Source: Myxococcaceae bacterium (GTDB lineage: Bacteria > Myxococcota > Myxococcia > Myxococcales > Myxococcaceae). Taken from it: 38,171 bases of DNA. Where the stretch lies: contig JALHOS010000018.1 of NCBI GenBank assembly GCA_022842905.1, positions 1-38,171 of the forward strand, written 5' to 3'. Shown one piece after another: positions 9,906 to 33,087 of this stretch. How positions within the stretch are numbered: the first letter of the stretch is position 1; each line of letters begins with the position of its first letter. The notes under the pieces were generated by a model. It worked only from the letters and a program-made list of their open reading frames with translations, had not been told where the DNA came from and did no database searches. The translations under genes were made by a program, and so were the position numbers.

Positions 9906-12182
9906 TCAGCGCGGCTTGTAGACGATCTGCCGCACCTCGACGCGGAGCCGGCCTTCGTAGCCCTCGCCCGTGTCGTCGAGCACCGACAGCCAGAGCCGTC
10001 GCGCCTTTCGCACCACCGCCGGCTTGTCCAGCTCGAGCACCGTCAGTCCCAGCGGCGCGCCGAGGAGCGCGGAGGTGATCTGCGCGCCCGACGCGCGCTT
10101 GGCCGGCGTGGCGCCCTGGCGCAGCGTCACCTCGTAGTCGAGCGTCGGGTCGAGCCCGGTGAGCGTGACGCGCGCGGTCTCGGGGAAGTCGAGCCGCGGT
10201 GAGATCTTCACCACCGTCGGGCGGCCGCGGCCCGGGCGCACCGTGAGCGCGCGCGGGCGCGTCTCTTCCTTGGCGTCGGCGTCGGTGAGCAGCTGCGTGG
10301 GCACGCGCAGCACGTAGAGGTGACTGGCGCCTCGGATCTCCAGCGGCTGCGCTCCGAACGTCCCGGGCGCCGCCCCCGCCGAGTTCACCACGTCGAACAG
10401 CCAGCCCAGGTACGGCCCGCGCGCCAGGCTGACGCGGTACGTCTGGCCCGGCGACAGCTCGATCTTCGTCGCGCCGGCCTTGCCCAGCTGGAGCCGGTGG
10501 AGCGCAGGCTCCAGCTCGAAGCTCTCGTTGGGCCAGCTCACCGCGTGCGGCGCCGGGCCGGGCGGAGCTTTGGGCGTCAGCTGGGTGCCTTCGACCACCA
10601 CTTCGATCGGCGGCTTCTCCGGCACCAGCTCCGCGGGGACCACCAGGTGCTGGCCCTTCTTCAGCTCGACGCGATCCGAGCGCCAGGGATCGAAGCCGGC
10701 CTTGGCGACCTCCACGCTGTAGCTGCGCGGCTCGAGCCCTTCGACGGTGACCGGCGTGCGCTGCTCGAGCGCGCGCCCGTCGAGCAGGACCACCGCGCCC
10801 GACGGCGTGGACCGGACCTCGAGCGTGCCCTTGGTCAGCCGCGCGTAGAGGAAGGACCCCGCCACCCCGGCGACGACGACGGCGATGCCGAGCGCCGCGG
10901 GCATCACGTACGGGCGGCTCGCTCCTCGGCTCGACGGGGCGGCGGCGGTCGCGGTGGGCGGGCGGTGCGCGGCTTGGCGCCGCGATTCGGGCTTGGGCTT
11001 GGGCGGCACCGGCGCGGGTGCGGGCTCCTTGGGCAACAGCGCCGTCGGCTCCCCTTCGACCGGCGCGTCGCGGGTCTCGGGCTCCGGCTGCCCGCGGCCA
11101 ATGCTCATGGTGTTGTCGCCGGTCGGATCTTCCAGCTCGTCGGCCGGCGGCAACGGGCTGAGCGCCGTCTCCGGCACGGGCTCCTTCCAGTCTTCCAGCC
11201 GCCGCCCGAAGTCCGACGGGAGCTGCACCGGCCGGCCCTGCTTGACCAGCTCGTCTTCGAACAGGAACTGGAGAAACTGCCCCAGCCGCGCCGGCGTGAA
11301 GTCGGGGTGGTTGTTCACCACGTAGCGGTTCAGATCGTCAGCGAACGCGAGCGCCGTCGGGTACCGGTTGCTGCGCTCGTTGGCCATGGCCTTGAGGATG
11401 ATCCGCTCGAGCTCGGTGAGCAGCCGAGGGTTGCGCAGCCGCGGGCTGTGGAACTGGCCGCGCACCAGCCGGGTGAGCGCCTCCATCATCTTCCCTTGGA
11501 AGGGGAGGTCGCCGGTCACCAGCTCGTACAGCACCACGCCGGCGGCGAAGACGTCGGTGCGCGCGTCGAGCTCGTGGGCCTTGGCCTGCTCGGGCGCGAA
11601 GTAGGCGTACTTTCCTTTGACCGCCGCCGAGCCCGTCTCTTCCGGCCCCGCGTTCTTCGCCCGGGCGATGCCGAAGTCGACCAGCTTCACCTGCCCCTCG
11701 TAGGACAGCAGCGCGTTCTGCGGGCTGATGTCCCGGTGGACGATGTGGAGCGGCTTGCCGTGCTCGTCCAGCCGGGTGTGCGCGTAGTGCAGGCCCTTGA
11801 GCACTTCGCCCACGACGAAGGCGGCGATCTCCGGGGGAATGACGGGAATGCCGACGGCCTTGGCCCGCTTGATGACCTTGGACAGCGGCGGGCCGTCGAC
11901 CAGCTCCATGGCGAGGAAGTAGTCCCCGTCGATGCTGCCGAAGTCGAAGACCTGGGCGATGTTGCCGTGGGACAGGCCCATGGCGATCTTCGCCTCGTTG
12001 GTGAACATGCCGATGAAGGACTTGTTCGCCGCGTAGTGCGGGAGGATCCGCTTGATGACGACCTGCTTGGTGACGCCCGGCGCCGGCGCGTACAGCGCTC
12101 GGAAGATCTCCGCCATACCGCCAGCGGCGATACGTTCGAGGAGCTCGTATTTTCCGAACTGGGTGCCTGGTGTTGCGCTCAC
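9906..12182 (-). CDS. Transmembrane Ser/Thr protein kinase with PEGA repeat
   Basis: GTG at 12182 (VSATPGTQFGKYELLERI) fits the usual kinase N-terminus, giving 758 residues; longer readings run into the divergent gene. Kinase domain 10-~290: Gly loop IAAGGMAEIF, Lys44 (VVIK), Glu63, catalytic HRDISPQN (149-156), DFG (169-171) and FAPEQA. A Pro-rich linker follows (~330-425), then one transmembrane helix (~428-447). A PEGA-type repeat starts at ~452 (GTLEVRSTPSGAVVLLDG) and a further beta-rich periplasmic region runs to the end. All catalytic residues are present, so it should be active in the cytoplasm and sense something outside. The HRDISPQN and AAGGMAEIF forms are typical of myxobacterial kinases. 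Its target is unknown. Confidence 0.93.
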   Translation of the reverse strand: MSATPGTQFGKYELLERIAAGGMAEIFRALYAPAPGVTKQVVIKRILPHYAANKSFIGMFTNEAKIAMGLSHGNIAQVFDFGSIDGDYFLAMELVDGPPLSKVIKRAKAVGIPVIPPEIAAFVVGEVLKGLHYAHTRLDEHGKPLHIVHRDISPQNALLSYEGQVKLVDFGIARAKNAGPEETGSAAVKGKYAYFAPEQAKAHELDARTDVFAAGVVLYELVTGDLPFQGKMMEALTRLVRGQFHSPRLRNPRLLTELERIILKAMANERSNRYPTALAFADDLNRYVVNNHPDFTPARLGQFLQFLFEDELVKQGRPVQLPSDFGRRLEDWKEPVPETALSPLPPADELEDPTGDNTMSIGRGQPEPETRDAPVEGEPTALLPKEPAPAPVPPKPKPESRRQAAHRPPTATAAAPSSRGASRPYVMPAALGIAVVVAGVAGSFLYARLTKGTLEVRSTPSGAVVLLDGRALEQRTPVTVEGLEPRSYSVEVAKAGFDPWRSDRVELKKGQHLVVPAELVPEKPPIEVVVEGTQLTPKAPPGPAPHAVSWPNESFELEPALHRLQLGKAGATKIELSPGQTYRVSLARGPYLGWLFDVVNSAGAAPGTFGAQPLEIRGASHLYVLRVPTQLLTDADAKEETRPRALTVRPGRGRPTVVKISPRLDFPETARVTLTGLDPTLDYEVTLRQGATPAKRASGAQITSALLGAPLGLTVLELDKPAVVRKARRLWLSVLDDTGEGYEGRLRVEVRQIVYKPR

Positions 12183-12216
12183 GAAGCGGCCTTTGCTGCG
12201 GCGCGGGCAAGCTACC

Positions 12217-13233
12217 ATGCGACGCCACATGCGCCGCCCTGAATCAACGCGAGCCGTTGGCCTCGCCCTGGCCCTGGCTCTCCTCATGGGCACGGCCGTC
12301 GACGCGGGCCCCAAGGTCCTGCTGCTGCCCGCGATCGGCGCTCCGAGCGGGCTCACGGTGGGTGGCCGGGTGCTCAAGGCGGCGCCCAAGGACGGCCACA
12401 GCAGCTTCACGCGGAACTTGAGGCGGCTGGGCGCGAGCGGCTGGCCAGAAGTGGCGGTCGAAGTGCGCTGCCTGGGTGGCGTGGCGCGGACGACGACGAA
12501 CGCCGAGGGCGGCTTCGAAGTGCAGCTCACTCCCGCCGCCGGCCAGCAGTTCCCCGTCGGTCGAGCCGACTGCGAGGCTCGCGCGGCGAAGGCGGAGCCG
12601 GGGCTGGCGCCGGTGGAGATCGTCGCCCCGCAGGCGCCCTTCGTGGTGCTGTCCGACTTCGACGACACGCTGGCGATCACCAATGTGGTCGACGGTCCCA
12701 AGCTCGTGGAGGCAGCGCTGCTGCAAGACGAGAACAGCCAGCCGGTCGTGCCCGGCATGGCCGACTTCTACCGGTGCCTGCGCGCCGACAAGCCGGCGAC
12801 GCCGGGCTTCGCGTTGGTGTCCGGCTCGCCGCTCCAGTACACGACGCGGGTGGCGCGCTTCTTGGGCAAGCACGGCTTCCCCTTCTTCGGGCTGTACCTG
12901 CGCGATCTGGGGCCGGACACGCTGCGCGGGTACAAGCAGCCCGTGCTGCGGGCGCTGCTGCGCCAAGTGCCCAACGACGTCGTCCTCGTCGGCGACTCCG
13001 GTGAGCACGACCCCGAGGTGTACGCTCAGATCCGCAGCGAGGCTGGCCCGCGGATCAAGGCCATCTACATTCGGAACGCGGGCAGAGCGGCCGATGTCAG
13101 TCGCTTCAAGGACATGGTGCTCTTCGACGATCCGGCCTTCGCCGCGCGTGACGCCGCGGGCCGAGGCCTCGCTTCACCCGACTGCGTCGCGCAGGCCTTC
13201 GGCGCCGACGCCGGGGTGGGGCTTTCAAGGTGA
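12217..13233 (+). CDS. Secreted App1-type phosphatidate phosphatase (HAD-like)
   Basis: The product has 338 residues (ATG 12217; a second ATG at 12229 is possible). Residues ~12-30 form a signal peptide, and a small beta domain precedes the catalytic part. From ~142 the App1 catalytic domain (DUF2183) begins: DFDDT (147-151) supplies the HAD nucleophile motif, SGSP (202-205) the second motif, K240 a candidate motif III lysine, and GDSGEHD (259-265) the acidic metal-binding motif. App1 enzymes remove phosphate from phosphatidic acid; the exact substrate in bacteria is not established. It is divergent from the kinase with only 34 bp between the starts, and first in a four-gene plus-strand run. 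Confidence 0.85.
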   Translation: MRRHMRRPESTRAVGLALALALLMGTAVDAGPKVLLLPAIGAPSGLTVGGRVLKAAPKDGHSSFTRNLRRLGASGWPEVAVEVRCLGGVARTTTNAEGGFEVQLTPAAGQQFPVGRADCEARAAKAEPGLAPVEIVAPQAPFVVLSDFDDTLAITNVVDGPKLVEAALLQDENSQPVVPGMADFYRCLRADKPATPGFALVSGSPLQYTTRVARFLGKHGFPFFGLYLRDLGPDTLRGYKQPVLRALLRQVPNDVVLVGDSGEHDPEVYAQIRSEAGPRIKAIYIRNAGRAADVSRFKDMVLFDDPAFAARDAAGRGLASPDCVAQAFGADAGVGLSR

Positions 13234-29515: not shown

Positions 29516-31258
29516 GTGAACATCACCTGCGACAAGTGCGGAAAGAAGTACTCGATCCCCGACGCCAAGATCGAGGAAATGCAGAAGGCCGGCAAGGGCT
29601 CCGCGAAGGTCCGCTGCAAGCAGTGCAGCAATCAGATCACCCTCTCGCTCGCCCCAGCCGCCGCGGCCCCCGTCGCGTCGCGTTCTTCGGGGCTCCGGGC
29701 GTCGCCGGCCGCCACGGCTGACGGCGGCGCTGCGCTCGGCGGTGACGTGGGCGACGACGGCGGCGTGGTGCCCAAGGCTGGACCCGCCTGGGAAGAAGAG
29801 CGCACCCGCGCGATGCCGGCGCTCGACATGTCCGTCACCTGGTTCGCGATGATCGGCGGCGCGCAGCAGGGCCCGTTCGATCTGGCGACCCTCAAGTCGA
29901 AGGTCGACGGCGGCGAAGTCACCCTGCGCACGTACTTGTGGAAGCCGGGCATGGCCGACTGGAAGCGGGCCAGCGACGTGCCGGAAGTCAGCCCTGTCTT
30001 CGCCGGCGTGTCCGTCGGTGCCACGGCCACCGGGCCCACGCAGCCAGCGTCGGTGCCGAAGAATGATGTCGCCGTCGCGACCGAGGTGCCCGCGCCCGAG
30101 GTGACCGACCGGGTCCCGCGCGATCCGGCTCCCGCGCGGACGAGCGGCGCCCCGAGCAAGGGCAACGGTCACGCGCCCGCGGCCTCCGAGCCGGATCCGT
30201 CGCTGTCCGTGACCCAGCCTCCGGACGAGCCCCAGGCCCAGGCGCTGCGGCAGGCGGCGGTCAAGCCCAACCCCCAGCTCAACGATCTCTTCGCCGACTT
30301 CCATGGCGACGGTGGGTCCACGGCCGAGGCCCCCGCGCCTTCGGAGTCGTCGACGGAGCAGCCAGCCAAGCCCGCCCCTCGCGCCGATCCGTTCGCGCAG
30401 CTGTCACAAGACGACGGGGTCGAGCCTCCCCCGCCGGGTGAGGCGACCAAGTTCTTCATCGCCCAGGCCGGCGTGAACAAGCGCAACCCGCCGTGGAAGA
30501 TCGCGCTCTTCGTCGCGTCGCTGATCGCGCTGCCGGCGGCCGTGCTGTACCTGCTGTCCACCTTCAAGGTGATTCCGCCCGTCACGCGCACCACGGAAGA
30601 CGGGCGCGTCGAGCAGGTCAGCTGGTTCTCGGGCGAAGGTGTGGCGGGCCTCAAGGACATGCTGACCGGCGAAGCCAAGCGCAAGCAGGAAGAGGCCGAG
30701 CGCACGCGGCAGGCGGCGCTCGAGGCCAAGCGCAAGGCCGCCGAAGCCGCAGCCAAAGCCCAGGCCGCCGCGGGCGCTCCACCCGAAGCGCCGACCACCC
30801 CGGACAAGGGCGCCGCGCCGACCCCCACCAGCCCCGCCGACAACGCCAAGGCCATGGCCGAGTGGGAAAAGCAGATGATGGCGGAGAACACCGGGGGCAT
30901 TGGCGCGAAGACGCCCAAGGTGCGCCTCGAAGACCGGCAGGCCCAGGCCGCGCTGAACACCGGCGGAGGGCTGTCCGCCGAGGTGATCTCCAAGACCGTC
31001 GCGCAGAAGATGGGTGGCTTCGAGGCCTGCATCACCAACGCGCTGCGCCGCAACCCGAACCTCGCCGTCGGCAACATCGAGCTCGTGCTCGACGTGGGCA
31101 CGTCGGGCACGGTCAAGAGCGCCACGGTGGACCCCAAGAAGCACGAAGGCGCGGACTGGGCGCAGTGCATGGTCGCCGCGGGCAAGCGCATCGTCTTCCC
31201 CGCGTCGAGTGAGGCCAGCGAGGTCCGGCTGCCCTTCAAGATCGGCGTCGCGCTGTAA
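29516..31258 (+). CDS. AgmX/GltJ-like protein: zinc ribbon, GYF domain, TM helix, AgmX-type C-terminus
   Basis: The product has 580 residues from GTG 29516. Residues 1-40 form an MJ0042-type zinc ribbon (C5, C8, C34, C37). Residues ~107-155 are a GYF_2 domain (WFAMIGGAQQGPFDLATL, then LWKPGMADWKRASDVPE). A low-complexity Pro/Ala linker leads to one membrane helix (~328-348) and a charged coiled coil (~385-420). The last ~95 residues (VAQKMGGFEACITNALRRNPNL, then AGKRIVFPASSEASEVRLPFKIGV) match the AgmX/PglI-type TonB-like C-terminus. This is the order seen in GltJ/AgmX of the Myxococcus gliding machinery, where the N-terminal part faces the polarity GTPase MglA in the cytoplasm. No other glt gene is nearby, so it may be a paralogue with another task. 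Confidence 0.85.
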   Translation: MNITCDKCGKKYSIPDAKIEEMQKAGKGSAKVRCKQCSNQITLSLAPAAAAPVASRSSGLRASPAATADGGAALGGDVGDDGGVVPKAGPAWEEERTRAMPALDMSVTWFAMIGGAQQGPFDLATLKSKVDGGEVTLRTYLWKPGMADWKRASDVPEVSPVFAGVSVGATATGPTQPASVPKNDVAVATEVPAPEVTDRVPRDPAPARTSGAPSKGNGHAPAASEPDPSLSVTQPPDEPQAQALRQAAVKPNPQLNDLFADFHGDGGSTAEAPAPSESSTEQPAKPAPRADPFAQLSQDDGVEPPPPGEATKFFIAQAGVNKRNPPWKIALFVASLIALPAAVLYLLSTFKVIPPVTRTTEDGRVEQVSWFSGEGVAGLKDMLTGEAKRKQEEAERTRQAALEAKRKAAEAAAKAQAAAGAPPEAPTTPDKGAAPTPTSPADNAKAMAEWEKQMMAENTGGIGAKTPKVRLEDRQAQAALNTGGGLSAEVISKTVAQKMGGFEACITNALRRNPNLAVGNIELVLDVGTSGTVKSATVDPKKHEGADWAQCMVAAGKRIVFPASSEASEVRLPFKIGVAL

Positions 31259-31290: not shown

Positions 31291-31968
31291 TCACTTCGTG
31301 GGCGCGTGCACGGGGAACGCCTTGAAGCGCGCGGCGCGCAGCGGCTCGAGCTCGCTGCTGCTCAGCTCCGGCACCGTTCCACCCAGCGTTCGGGCGACGG
31401 TGAGGATCTTCGCGTAGTGCTCCACCAGCTCCATGCGGAGCAGCGTCAGCGAGAGCTCGTCGGCCACCGTGAGCGCGCCGTTGCCGCCCAGGAGCATGGC
31501 GTCGGCCTTCGCCGCGGCGCCTTCGACGGCCTTCACCAGCGCGTCGGTCTTGGGCATGAGCCGGGGGATAAGGGGGATCTGCTCGCCCAACGAGACGACG
31601 ATCTCCGGCATGGCCACGGGCCCCAGCTCGAGCCCGAGCAGCCCGAAGGCGGTCGCGTGTGGCGGGTGGGCGTGCAGCACGGCCTGCACGTCGGGCCGGG
31701 CCCGGTACGCGGCCAGGTGCAGCTCCAGCTCGCCGAACGGCTTGCGGCGGCCCTCGAGCACCTTGCCCGCCGCGTCGACGACGATCAGCAGGTCCGCGTC
31801 GACGTCGCGCTTGGACACCGCCGTCGGGGTGCACAGGAAGCGGTTCCCCGACAGCCGCACCGACACGTTGCCGTCGTGGTTGGCCACCCAGCCCAGCTCG
31901 TGAATGCGCCGCGACACGGCGACGAGGTCTGCCTTCAGCTTCGGCGTCAGCGGGCGAGGTGAGCTCAC
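31291..31968 (-). CDS. Class II aldolase/adducin-family protein, BMC-cluster associated
   Basis: The product has 225 residues from a GTG overlapping the upstream BMC gene stop (GTGA). The fold is clear: GNVSVRL near 33-39, KPFGELELHLAAYRARPDVQAVLHAHPPHA giving E80, H99 and H101, and LLRMELVEHYAKIL near the C-terminus. Family members use three His residues for Zn and split sugar phosphates such as fuculose 1-phosphate. The third ligand normally lies in an [NG]HG turn; here the turn reads GGNG, with Asn163 in that place. The metal site may therefore be altered. Vertex-protein neighbours suggest a metabolosome role. The substrate is unknown. Confidence 0.85.
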   Translation of the reverse strand: MSSPRPLTPKLKADLVAVSRRIHELGWVANHDGNVSVRLSGNRFLCTPTAVSKRDVDADLLIVVDAAGKVLEGRRKPFGELELHLAAYRARPDVQAVLHAHPPHATAFGLLGLELGPVAMPEIVVSLGEQIPLIPRLMPKTDALVKAVEGAAAKADAMLLGGNGALTVADELSLTLLRMELVEHYAKILTVARTLGGTVPELSSSELEPLRAARFKAFPVHAPTK

Positions 31969-32261
31969 GGCGTTTCGCGCGAGTCCCGGGCGTCGAGCGA
32001 CACCTGATCGACCACCCCGACGATGACGGAGCGGATCGGCGCCGTGGGGTCCTTGAGGATCTGCCGGGCCCCGCCGCCTTCGTTCATGACCAGCACCACG
32101 TCACCTTGCCCCGCGCCGGTGTGCTCGTCGACCGCGAGGAAAGACTTACCCTGCGCCGCCAGGTGCTCGTCGAGCGGCTGCACGACCAGGATCTTCTTCG
32201 CGTGGAAGGCGGGGTGCTTCTCGGTGGCGACCACCGGGCCCAGCACTCGGCACAGGTTCAT
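31965..32261 (-). CDS. EutN/CcmL-type microcompartment vertex protein (BMC-P), copy 1
   Basis: The product has 98 residues from ATG 32261, which overlaps the previous gene as ATGA. The pattern is the pentamer family: MNLCRVLGPVVATEKHP at the start, KILVVQPLDEH, LAVDEHTGAGQGDVVLVMNEGGGAR in the middle and SVIVGVVDQV near the end. Such proteins form pentamers that cap the vertices of icosahedral microcompartment shells. The C-terminal ~12 residues after the core (DARDSRETP) are an unstructured tail. A longer reading upstream is shadow and adds nothing recognisable. Confidence 0.92.
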   Translation of the reverse strand: MNLCRVLGPVVATEKHPAFHAKKILVVQPLDEHLAAQGKSFLAVDEHTGAGQGDVVLVMNEGGGARQILKDPTAPIRSVIVGVVDQVSLDARDSRETP

Positions 32262-32521
32262 GTGCTCACCTCGTCGACGATGCCGACGATCGCGCTGTCC
32301 ACGGGGACGAACCACGGATCACACGCCAGCGCCGCCTCGCGACTGCCCTCGAGCATGACCAGCGCGCCCGGCCGCGCCGACGCGCGATCCACCGCCACCT
32401 CGGGCTGGCCGTTCGGCTTCTCGTGGTGGTCGACCGGCTGCACGAGCAGAAAGCGCGCGCCTTCCAGCCCGCTGATGCGCTTGGTGCACACCACCGTTCC
32501 GATCACCTTGCCCAGGTACAT
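32258..32521 (-). CDS. EutN/CcmL-type microcompartment vertex protein (BMC-P), copy 2
   Basis: The product has 87 residues from ATG 32521, 20 bp after the lipoprotein gene. Core motifs match the family: MYLGKVIGTVVCTKRISGLEG, FLLVQPVDHH, EVAVDRASARPGALVMLEGSREA and SAIVGIVDEV. It is clearly diverged from copy 1 (for example ARPGALVM for AGQGDVVL), so the two are not a recent duplication. Different BMC-P proteins often coexist in one shell. No hexameric BMC-H or BMC-T protein is in the window, so any shell would depend on genes elsewhere. Confidence 0.92.
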   Translation of the reverse strand: MYLGKVIGTVVCTKRISGLEGARFLLVQPVDHHEKPNGQPEVAVDRASARPGALVMLEGSREAALACDPWFVPVDSAIVGIVDEVST

Positions 32522-32541
32522 GGCGGCGGCCCTCGTCTTCG

Positions 32542-33087
32542 TTACAGCTGCGGGACGACGGGGAAGGACGCGGCGACCAGGCGATCGCGCCCGTCGTGGC
32601 GAACCTGATCGCCGTTCTTGATCGACAGCCGCGCGTCCGTCTTCGGATCCCAGAAGCCGAGCAGCACGTTGAGCCCGCGTACGTTCATGCCCGGGGGAAT
32701 GGGCACCTCGAACTCGTCGCGGATCGTCTGGCCCACTTCCCACTTCGACGTGGGCACCGCGCCGCGCGCCGGGGCGTGGTCCACGTTGAGGCGATCGGCC
32801 CGGCCGTCGACGTCTTCGACGTGGACGAAGACCATGTAGTCGGCGTCGAGCTGCGAGAGCACCTTGAGGTTGAGCAGCATGCGCATGCCTTCCCCGGGGT
32901 AACCCTTGTCGTTGCCCAAGATGACGCTCGTCAGCTCGAGCTTGTCGCCGAAGTTGGCGCCCGACCGCAGCTCGATGGGACGGGCAGCCGGGCGATCCGC
33001 GCGGGTCGGCCCAGACTCGCTGGTGGGCGCCGGGACGATGCAGCCCAGCCCGGCGACGGCGGCGATCACCAAGAAGGAGGTGCGCAT
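32542..33087 (-). CDS. Lipoprotein with a beta-sandwich domain, head of BMC-P operon
   Basis: The product has 181 residues. The signal segment MRTSFLVIAAVAGLGC gives Cys16 as the likely lipid site, although the lipobox -3 position is Gly. From ~45 a beta-sandwich domain follows: GDKLELTSVILGNDKGYPG, MRMLLNLKVLSQLDADYMVFVHVED, PTSKWEVGQTIRDEFEVPIPP and VLLGFWDP. This layout resembles a domain often fused to or encoded beside membrane glycosyltransferases. It lies 20 bp upstream of the BMC-P genes, so it is probably co-transcribed, though a periplasmic lipoprotein has no obvious link to a cytoplasmic shell. The function is unknown. Confidence 0.75.
   Translation of the reverse strand: MRTSFLVIAAVAGLGCIVPAPTSESGPTRADRPAARPIELRSGANFGDKLELTSVILGNDKGYPGEGMRMLLNLKVLSQLDADYMVFVHVEDVDGRADRLNVDHAPARGAVPTSKWEVGQTIRDEFEVPIPPGMNVRGLNVLLGFWDPKTDARLSIKNGDQVRHDGRDRLVAASFPVVPQL

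What the first reader, a model, noticed from the sequence alone, without database searches (positions are those of the whole stretch)
31291..33087. Shell-less microcompartment cluster: two BMC-P vertex proteins with a class II aldolase
Two diverged EutN/CcmL-type pentamer genes and an aldolase-family gene are joined by ATGA and GTGA overlaps behind a lipoprotein gene. No BMC-H or BMC-T shell gene, aldehyde dehydrogenase, alcohol dehydrogenase or phosphotransacylase lies in the 38-kb window. Aldolases occur in known metabolosomes (planctomycete and Haliangium types), so this may be a satellite part of a scattered locus. It may instead be a remnant, or a pentamer-only structure with a different use. 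Pentamers without hexamers would be unusual.
Basis: partly seen in the sequence, partly recalled or inferred. Interest (0 to 1): 0.78.

Follow-up and report, generated by a model that had tools for sequence, protein, structure and literature searches.

The report
Satellite operon of Haliangium-type bacterial microcompartment
The two vertex-protein genes and the aldolase-family gene are a detached piece, already described in the literature, of a complete protein-shelled metabolic organelle whose other genes lie elsewhere in the same myxobacterial genome, so this is not a shell made only of pentamers.

Summary
On the minus strand the window encodes two BMC-P (EutN/CcmL) proteins and a PF00596 class II aldolase-family protein, joined by ATGA and GTGA overlaps. 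The 'shell-less' reading does not hold. The same genome carries a main locus on contig C104 (BMC-T, BMC-H, a third BMC-P, aldehyde dehydrogenase, BMC-T) and an ethanolamine module on C41 (EutB, EutC, EutL-like BMC-T). [quoted passage not shown] All 73 of 195 Myxococcota genomes with pentamers also have BMC-domain proteins. The gene order is kept across many families; the lipoprotein gene is not part of the unit. Two refinements may be new. The third metal-ligand histidine of these aldolases (FucA H155) is His in 42 and Asn in 56 distinct relatives, never anything else; the window has Asn and no encapsulation tail. A deoxyribose-phosphate aldolase with an encapsulation-like N-terminus and a Cys-rich linker tracks the compartment, and sits next to this satellite in several lineages. 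Likeliest role: vertices and an accessory enzyme for an acetaldehyde-oxidising metabolosome. The cluster itself is ordinary.

The parts
32258..32521 (-). BMC-P vertex protein (87 aa), first gene of the conserved module
   Evidence: PF03319 E = 1.9e-24; whole-genome search 85.4 bits; conserved first in the order BMC-P > BMC-P > aldolase
31965..32261 (-). BMC-P vertex protein (98 aa), second gene, ATGA overlap with the first
   Evidence: PF03319 E = 3.2e-23; AlphaFold model matches EutN/CcmL pentamer structures
31291..31968 (-). PF00596 class II aldolase-family protein (225 aa, GTG start), GTGA overlap with the BMC-P gene; N163 in place of the third metal-binding His; no encapsulation-like tail
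   Evidence: PF00596 E = 1.6e-40; model pLDDT 95.5 matches L-fuculose-1-phosphate aldolases; alignment to FucA; tail comparison
32542..33087 (-). lipoprotein-like gene (181 aa), adjacent but not part of the conserved module
   Evidence: No Pfam or NCBIfam match; not a conserved neighbour of the module

Best explanation
The cluster is the satellite locus of a type I HO (Haliangium ochraceum-type) bacterial microcompartment. Shown by sequence: the genome has one BMC-H, several BMC-T, three BMC-P in all and an aldehyde dehydrogenase of the PduP/EutE kind, split over at least three loci; the window supplies two of the three BMC-P plus a PF00596 enzyme. Inferred: the two pentamers cap vertices of the shell whose facets come from the C104 genes. 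Inferred: the compartment confines acetaldehyde made by an encapsulated deoxyribose-phosphate aldolase (gene on C193) and by ethanolamine ammonia-lyase (C41), and oxidises it to acetyl-CoA with the C104 aldehyde dehydrogenase. Weakly inferred: the window's PF00596 enzyme is an accessory aldolase acting on a ketose 1-phosphate, or an altered derivative of one; its Asn in place of the third metal-binding His and its lack of a targeting tail leave its chemistry and location open. The confidence given is for the satellite assignment; for the acetaldehyde pathway it is about 0.55, and for a ketose 1-phosphate aldolase activity about 0.3.
For: Main locus and EUT module in the same genome. Main-locus BMC-P and BMC-T match H. 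ochraceum shell chains best in the PDB, and the BMC-H does so among natural proteins. PMC8217296 describes exactly this satellite and EUT modules for HO compartments. All 73 pentamer-bearing Myxococcota genomes of 195 also have PF00936. Order BMC-P > BMC-P > aldolase in about 111 of 141 loci, collections overlapping, with the same ATGA overlap in 89. DeoC with an encapsulation-like N-terminus in this genome, aligned in 53 of 68 pentamer-bearing genomes with a DeoC match and about 3 of 114 others, and directly next to the satellite aldolase in several lineages. AldDH and EutC also begin with amphipathic helices.
Against: No protein-level or expression evidence. The AldDH was not placed in a tree with HO, SPU5 and SPU7 enzymes, and the H. 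ochraceum satellite genes themselves were not in the collections used. The window aldolase lacks both an encapsulation-like tail and the third metal His, so its place in the lumen and its activity are doubtful. The DeoC-compartment association is not corrected for relatedness, counts unprinted low-scoring matches as lacking the extension, and two genomes (G073, G074) have the extended DeoC without any compartment.
Confidence: 0.92

Rival explanations
1. Pentamer-only structure: the two BMC-P proteins form pentamers used without hexamers, for instance as a scaffold or regulator for the aldolase.
For: No hexamer gene within the 38-kb window.
Against: One BMC-H and several BMC-T genes are in the same genome, and none of 73 pentamer-bearing Myxococcota genomes lacks PF00936.
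Confidence: 0.02
2. Decaying remnant: the satellite is a leftover whose aldolase, and perhaps whose pentamers, no longer serve the compartment in this genome.
For: The window aldolase has Asn at the third metal-ligand position, lacks an encapsulation-like tail, and has diverged faster than its sister sequences (64% against 75% mean identity to outgroups) while the two pentamers have not.
Against: All three frames are intact. Asn is fixed in 56 distinct relatives and no residue other than His or Asn occurs there, which decay would not give. E80, H84, H99 and H101 are invariant. Ten Asn forms still carry the encapsulation-like tail.
Confidence: 0.05
3. PVM/GRM5-like compartment: the PF00596 enzyme is the signature aldolase for fuculose or rhamnulose 1-phosphate, giving lactaldehyde.
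For: Same Pfam family and the fold of L-fuculose-1-phosphate aldolase.
Against: Third metal His replaced by Asn; best solved relative by sequence is the 5-deoxyribulose-1-phosphate aldolase DrdA, though E. coli FucA scores almost as well; the genome has an encapsulation-tagged DeoC and a EutB/EutC module, both acetaldehyde producers; shell genes match the HO type.
Confidence: 0.08

Closest known systems
HO bacterial microcompartment, type I (Haliangium ochraceum model; PMC8217296)
   Same: Three BMC-P in all, two of them in a satellite with an aldolase; main locus with BMC-H, BMC-T, BMC-P and aldehyde dehydrogenase; EUT-module satellite.
   Different: Nothing that excludes membership was found. 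The window aldolase has Asn at the third metal position and no encapsulation-like tail; whether the H. ochraceum protein shares this was not checked.
HO microcompartment, type II
   Same: Same shell and enzyme set.
   Different: In type II the two BMC-P, DeoC and aldolase are in the main locus (family f11, L091-L097); those aldolases have His, and most have an encapsulation-like tail.
L-fuculose-1-phosphate aldolase (FucA, 1fua)
   Same: Fold, about 30% identity in the structural match, catalytic Glu and first two metal His.
   Different: N163 in place of H155.
DrdA, 5-deoxyribulose-1-phosphate aldolase of Bacillus thuringiensis (6btd; PMC6079011)
   Same: Best sequence match of the window aldolase in the PDB, E = 5e-18; releases acetaldehyde and DHAP.
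   Different: Low identity; DrdA keeps the His where the window has Asn.

Membership tests
HO microcompartment, type I | Three BMC-P proteins (the BMC-P triplet) | tested here: met
   Exactly three PF03319 proteins in the genome: one on C104, two in the window
HO microcompartment, type I | Satellite locus with two BMC-P and an aldolase | tested here: met
   definition from PMC8217296
HO microcompartment, type I | Separate main locus with BMC-H, BMC-P, BMC-T and aldehyde dehydrogenase | tested here: met
   Contig C104, L010:7007-10455
HO microcompartment, type I | BMC-T of the double-pore kind similar to H. ochraceum HO-5816 | tested here: met
   Best PDB match 5v74 (HO-5816), E = 1.1e-77
HO microcompartment, type I | EUT-module satellite (seen in some HO genomes) | tested here: met
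   EutB, EutC and EutL-like BMC-T on C41; EutA not searched
HO microcompartment, type I | AldDH grouping with HO, SPU5 and SPU7 enzymes in a tree | not tested
HO microcompartment, type I | Assembled shells in cells | not testable with these tools
   Needs microscopy or purification
PduL-type complete-core metabolosome | PduL phosphotransacylase (PF06130) | tested here: not met
   No match in the genome; PMC4207490 lists the H. ochraceum locus among metabolosomes with an incomplete core
FucA-type zinc class II aldolase | PF00596 fold | tested here: met
FucA-type zinc class II aldolase | Catalytic Glu and first two metal His (FucA E73, H92, H94) | tested here: met
   E80, H99, H101 in the window protein, invariant among 39 relatives
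FucA-type zinc class II aldolase | Third metal His (FucA H155) | tested here: not met
   N163 in the window protein; 56 Asn against 42 His among distinct relatives
Pentamer-only system | No BMC-H or BMC-T in the genome | tested here: not met
   PF00936 proteins on C104 and C41

The most novel reading that the evidence does not exclude
The satellite PF00596 enzyme of most type I HO compartments is not a standard zinc aldolase: a conserved Asn replaces the third metal ligand while the rest of the site is kept, giving a changed metal site or reaction (for instance a ketose 1-phosphate aldolase feeding acetaldehyde to the same compartment as DeoC and EutBC), and in the window's lineage the enzyme has also lost its encapsulation tail and may have left the lumen.
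Probability: 0.25. Interest if true: 0.5.

Novelty: new member of a known kind. Interest (0 to 1): 0.3.

Why it matters
The HO compartment is the structural model for microcompartment shells, yet its function was called enigmatic in the 2021 catalogue (PMC8217296). The cluster itself adds one more member. The survey adds testable points: a DeoC with an encapsulation-like helix and a Cys-rich linker tracks the compartment across the phylum and sits beside the satellite in several lineages, and the satellite aldolase exists in a His and an Asn form. Both give direct biochemical tests of what the model compartment does.

Tried and rejected
Pentamer-only reading: rejected by the genome-wide and phylum-wide searches for PF00936. 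Lipoprotein as a fourth module gene: rejected, no conserved neighbourhood. Misassembly as the cause of the split: rejected, the same split is seen in dozens of independent assemblies. The C268 PF01791 match as the encapsulated aldolase: rejected, its frame has no N-terminal extension and it reads like a class I fructose-bisphosphate aldolase (my reading); the C193 match is the DeoC. Correlation of His/Asn with the encapsulation-like tail: suggestive in raw counts, but only one independent pair on supported branches, so no claim. Paper searches for the H. ochraceum locus tags and for Asn-variant aldolases found nothing. No sigma-70-like promoter or terminator was seen near the cluster.

Full report
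What is there. The minus strand from 33087 to 31291 reads: a lipoprotein-like gene (32542-33087), a BMC-P (32258-32521), a second BMC-P (31965-32261) and a PF00596 aldolase-family gene (31291-31968). Sequence and reading frames were checked directly. Pfam gives PF03319 for both small proteins (E = 1.9e-24 and 3.2e-23) and PF00596 for the third (1.6e-40). The AlphaFold model of the 98-aa protein matches solved EutN/CcmL pentamers, among them the H. ochraceum shell. The aldolase model (pLDDT 95.5) matches L-fuculose-1-phosphate aldolases.

The rest of the shell is elsewhere in the genome. Searching the window's own assembly (7.85 Mb, 667 contigs) found PF00936 on C104 and C41 and a third PF03319 on C104. 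C104 reads BMC-T, BMC-H, BMC-P, aldehyde dehydrogenase, BMC-T, aminotransferase. The first BMC-T and the BMC-P match H. ochraceum shell chains best in the PDB, and so does the BMC-H among natural proteins (an engineered tandem BMC-H fusion scores higher). C41 carries EutB, EutC and an EutL-like BMC-T. No PduL phosphotransacylase was found.

It is a known arrangement. [quoted passage not shown] The window genome shows each of these.

Phylum-wide test. Of 195 Myxococcota genomes, 73 have PF03319 and 76 have PF00936; each of the 73 is in the second set (sets compared by hand). I fetched about 60 regions around pentamer genes and 80 loci with organism names. About 111 of 141 loci (the collections overlap) hold BMC-P > BMC-P > aldolase in that order, and the ATGA overlap between the pentamer genes recurs in 89. 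One family (f11) has all parts in one locus, the type II form. A pentamer-only system and a misassembly are therefore both excluded.

The aldolase is unusual. Aligned to FucA, the window protein keeps the catalytic Glu (E80) and the first two metal His (H99, H101), but has N163 where FucA has its third metal-binding His (the roles of these FucA residues are from general knowledge). Among 98 distinct relatives with that position, 42 have His, 56 have Asn and none has anything else. On a tree built without that column the label needs at least four changes, and the window lies in supported all-Asn groups. Most His forms and ten Asn forms end in a linker and an amphipathic helix like an encapsulation peptide; the window and its near relatives do not. 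The window aldolase has diverged faster than its sisters while its two pentamers have not. It is the only PF00596 protein found in this genome. Its best solved relative by sequence is DrdA, which releases acetaldehyde and DHAP. That is a lead, not a function.

Likely function. The genome's DeoC on C193 begins MSQDTNALVDDIAERVRRRLEAAR, then a Cys-rich linker, then the catalytic domain. AldDH and EutC also begin with amphipathic helices; the moment of the DeoC helix alone is not significant against shuffles. PMC8217296 noted EP-like extensions on some PF01791 enzymes of HO genomes. Here the extension aligns in 53 of 68 pentamer-bearing genomes with a DeoC match, against about 3 of 114 others (low-ranked matches that were not printed are counted as lacking it, relatedness is not corrected for, and two genomes have it with no compartment). 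The same DeoC follows the satellite aldolase within about 80 nt in several lineages, and lies just upstream of it in type II loci. I infer a compartment that turns acetaldehyde from deoxyribose 5-phosphate and ethanolamine into acetyl-CoA. The window supplies two vertex proteins and an accessory enzyme whose reaction is open.

Verdict. The cluster is a new example of a described kind; the His/Asn split and the DeoC linker are the parts worth following.

Noticed in passing
L183:1231-2145 (own genome, contig C193) and L184-L213: DeoC with an N-terminal amphipathic helix followed by a conserved Cys-rich linker (for example C-x3-C-x2-C-x5-C), which could bind Fe-S or zinc; other Cys spacings occur in other lineages, type II loci included.
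   Followed up: partly
window 31291-31968, residue N163, and relatives L041-L180: Strict His/Asn alternation at the third metal ligand of the satellite aldolases (42 against 56 distinct sequences, no other residue).
   Followed up: partly
genomes G073 and G074 (genome search handles): Extended DeoC without any BMC-domain or pentamer match, perhaps compartment loss that left the cargo enzyme behind.
   Followed up: no
L169 (CAMBIK010000023.1): A record titled Klebsiella pneumoniae MAG carries the myxobacterial-type satellite; its aldolase groups with Deltaproteobacteria sequences, so the record is probably mislabelled.
   Followed up: no
window 9906-12758 and 29516-31258: Ser/Thr kinase with a PEGA domain, and a zinc-ribbon/GYF-domain protein that converges on the module from the opposite strand.
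   Followed up: no
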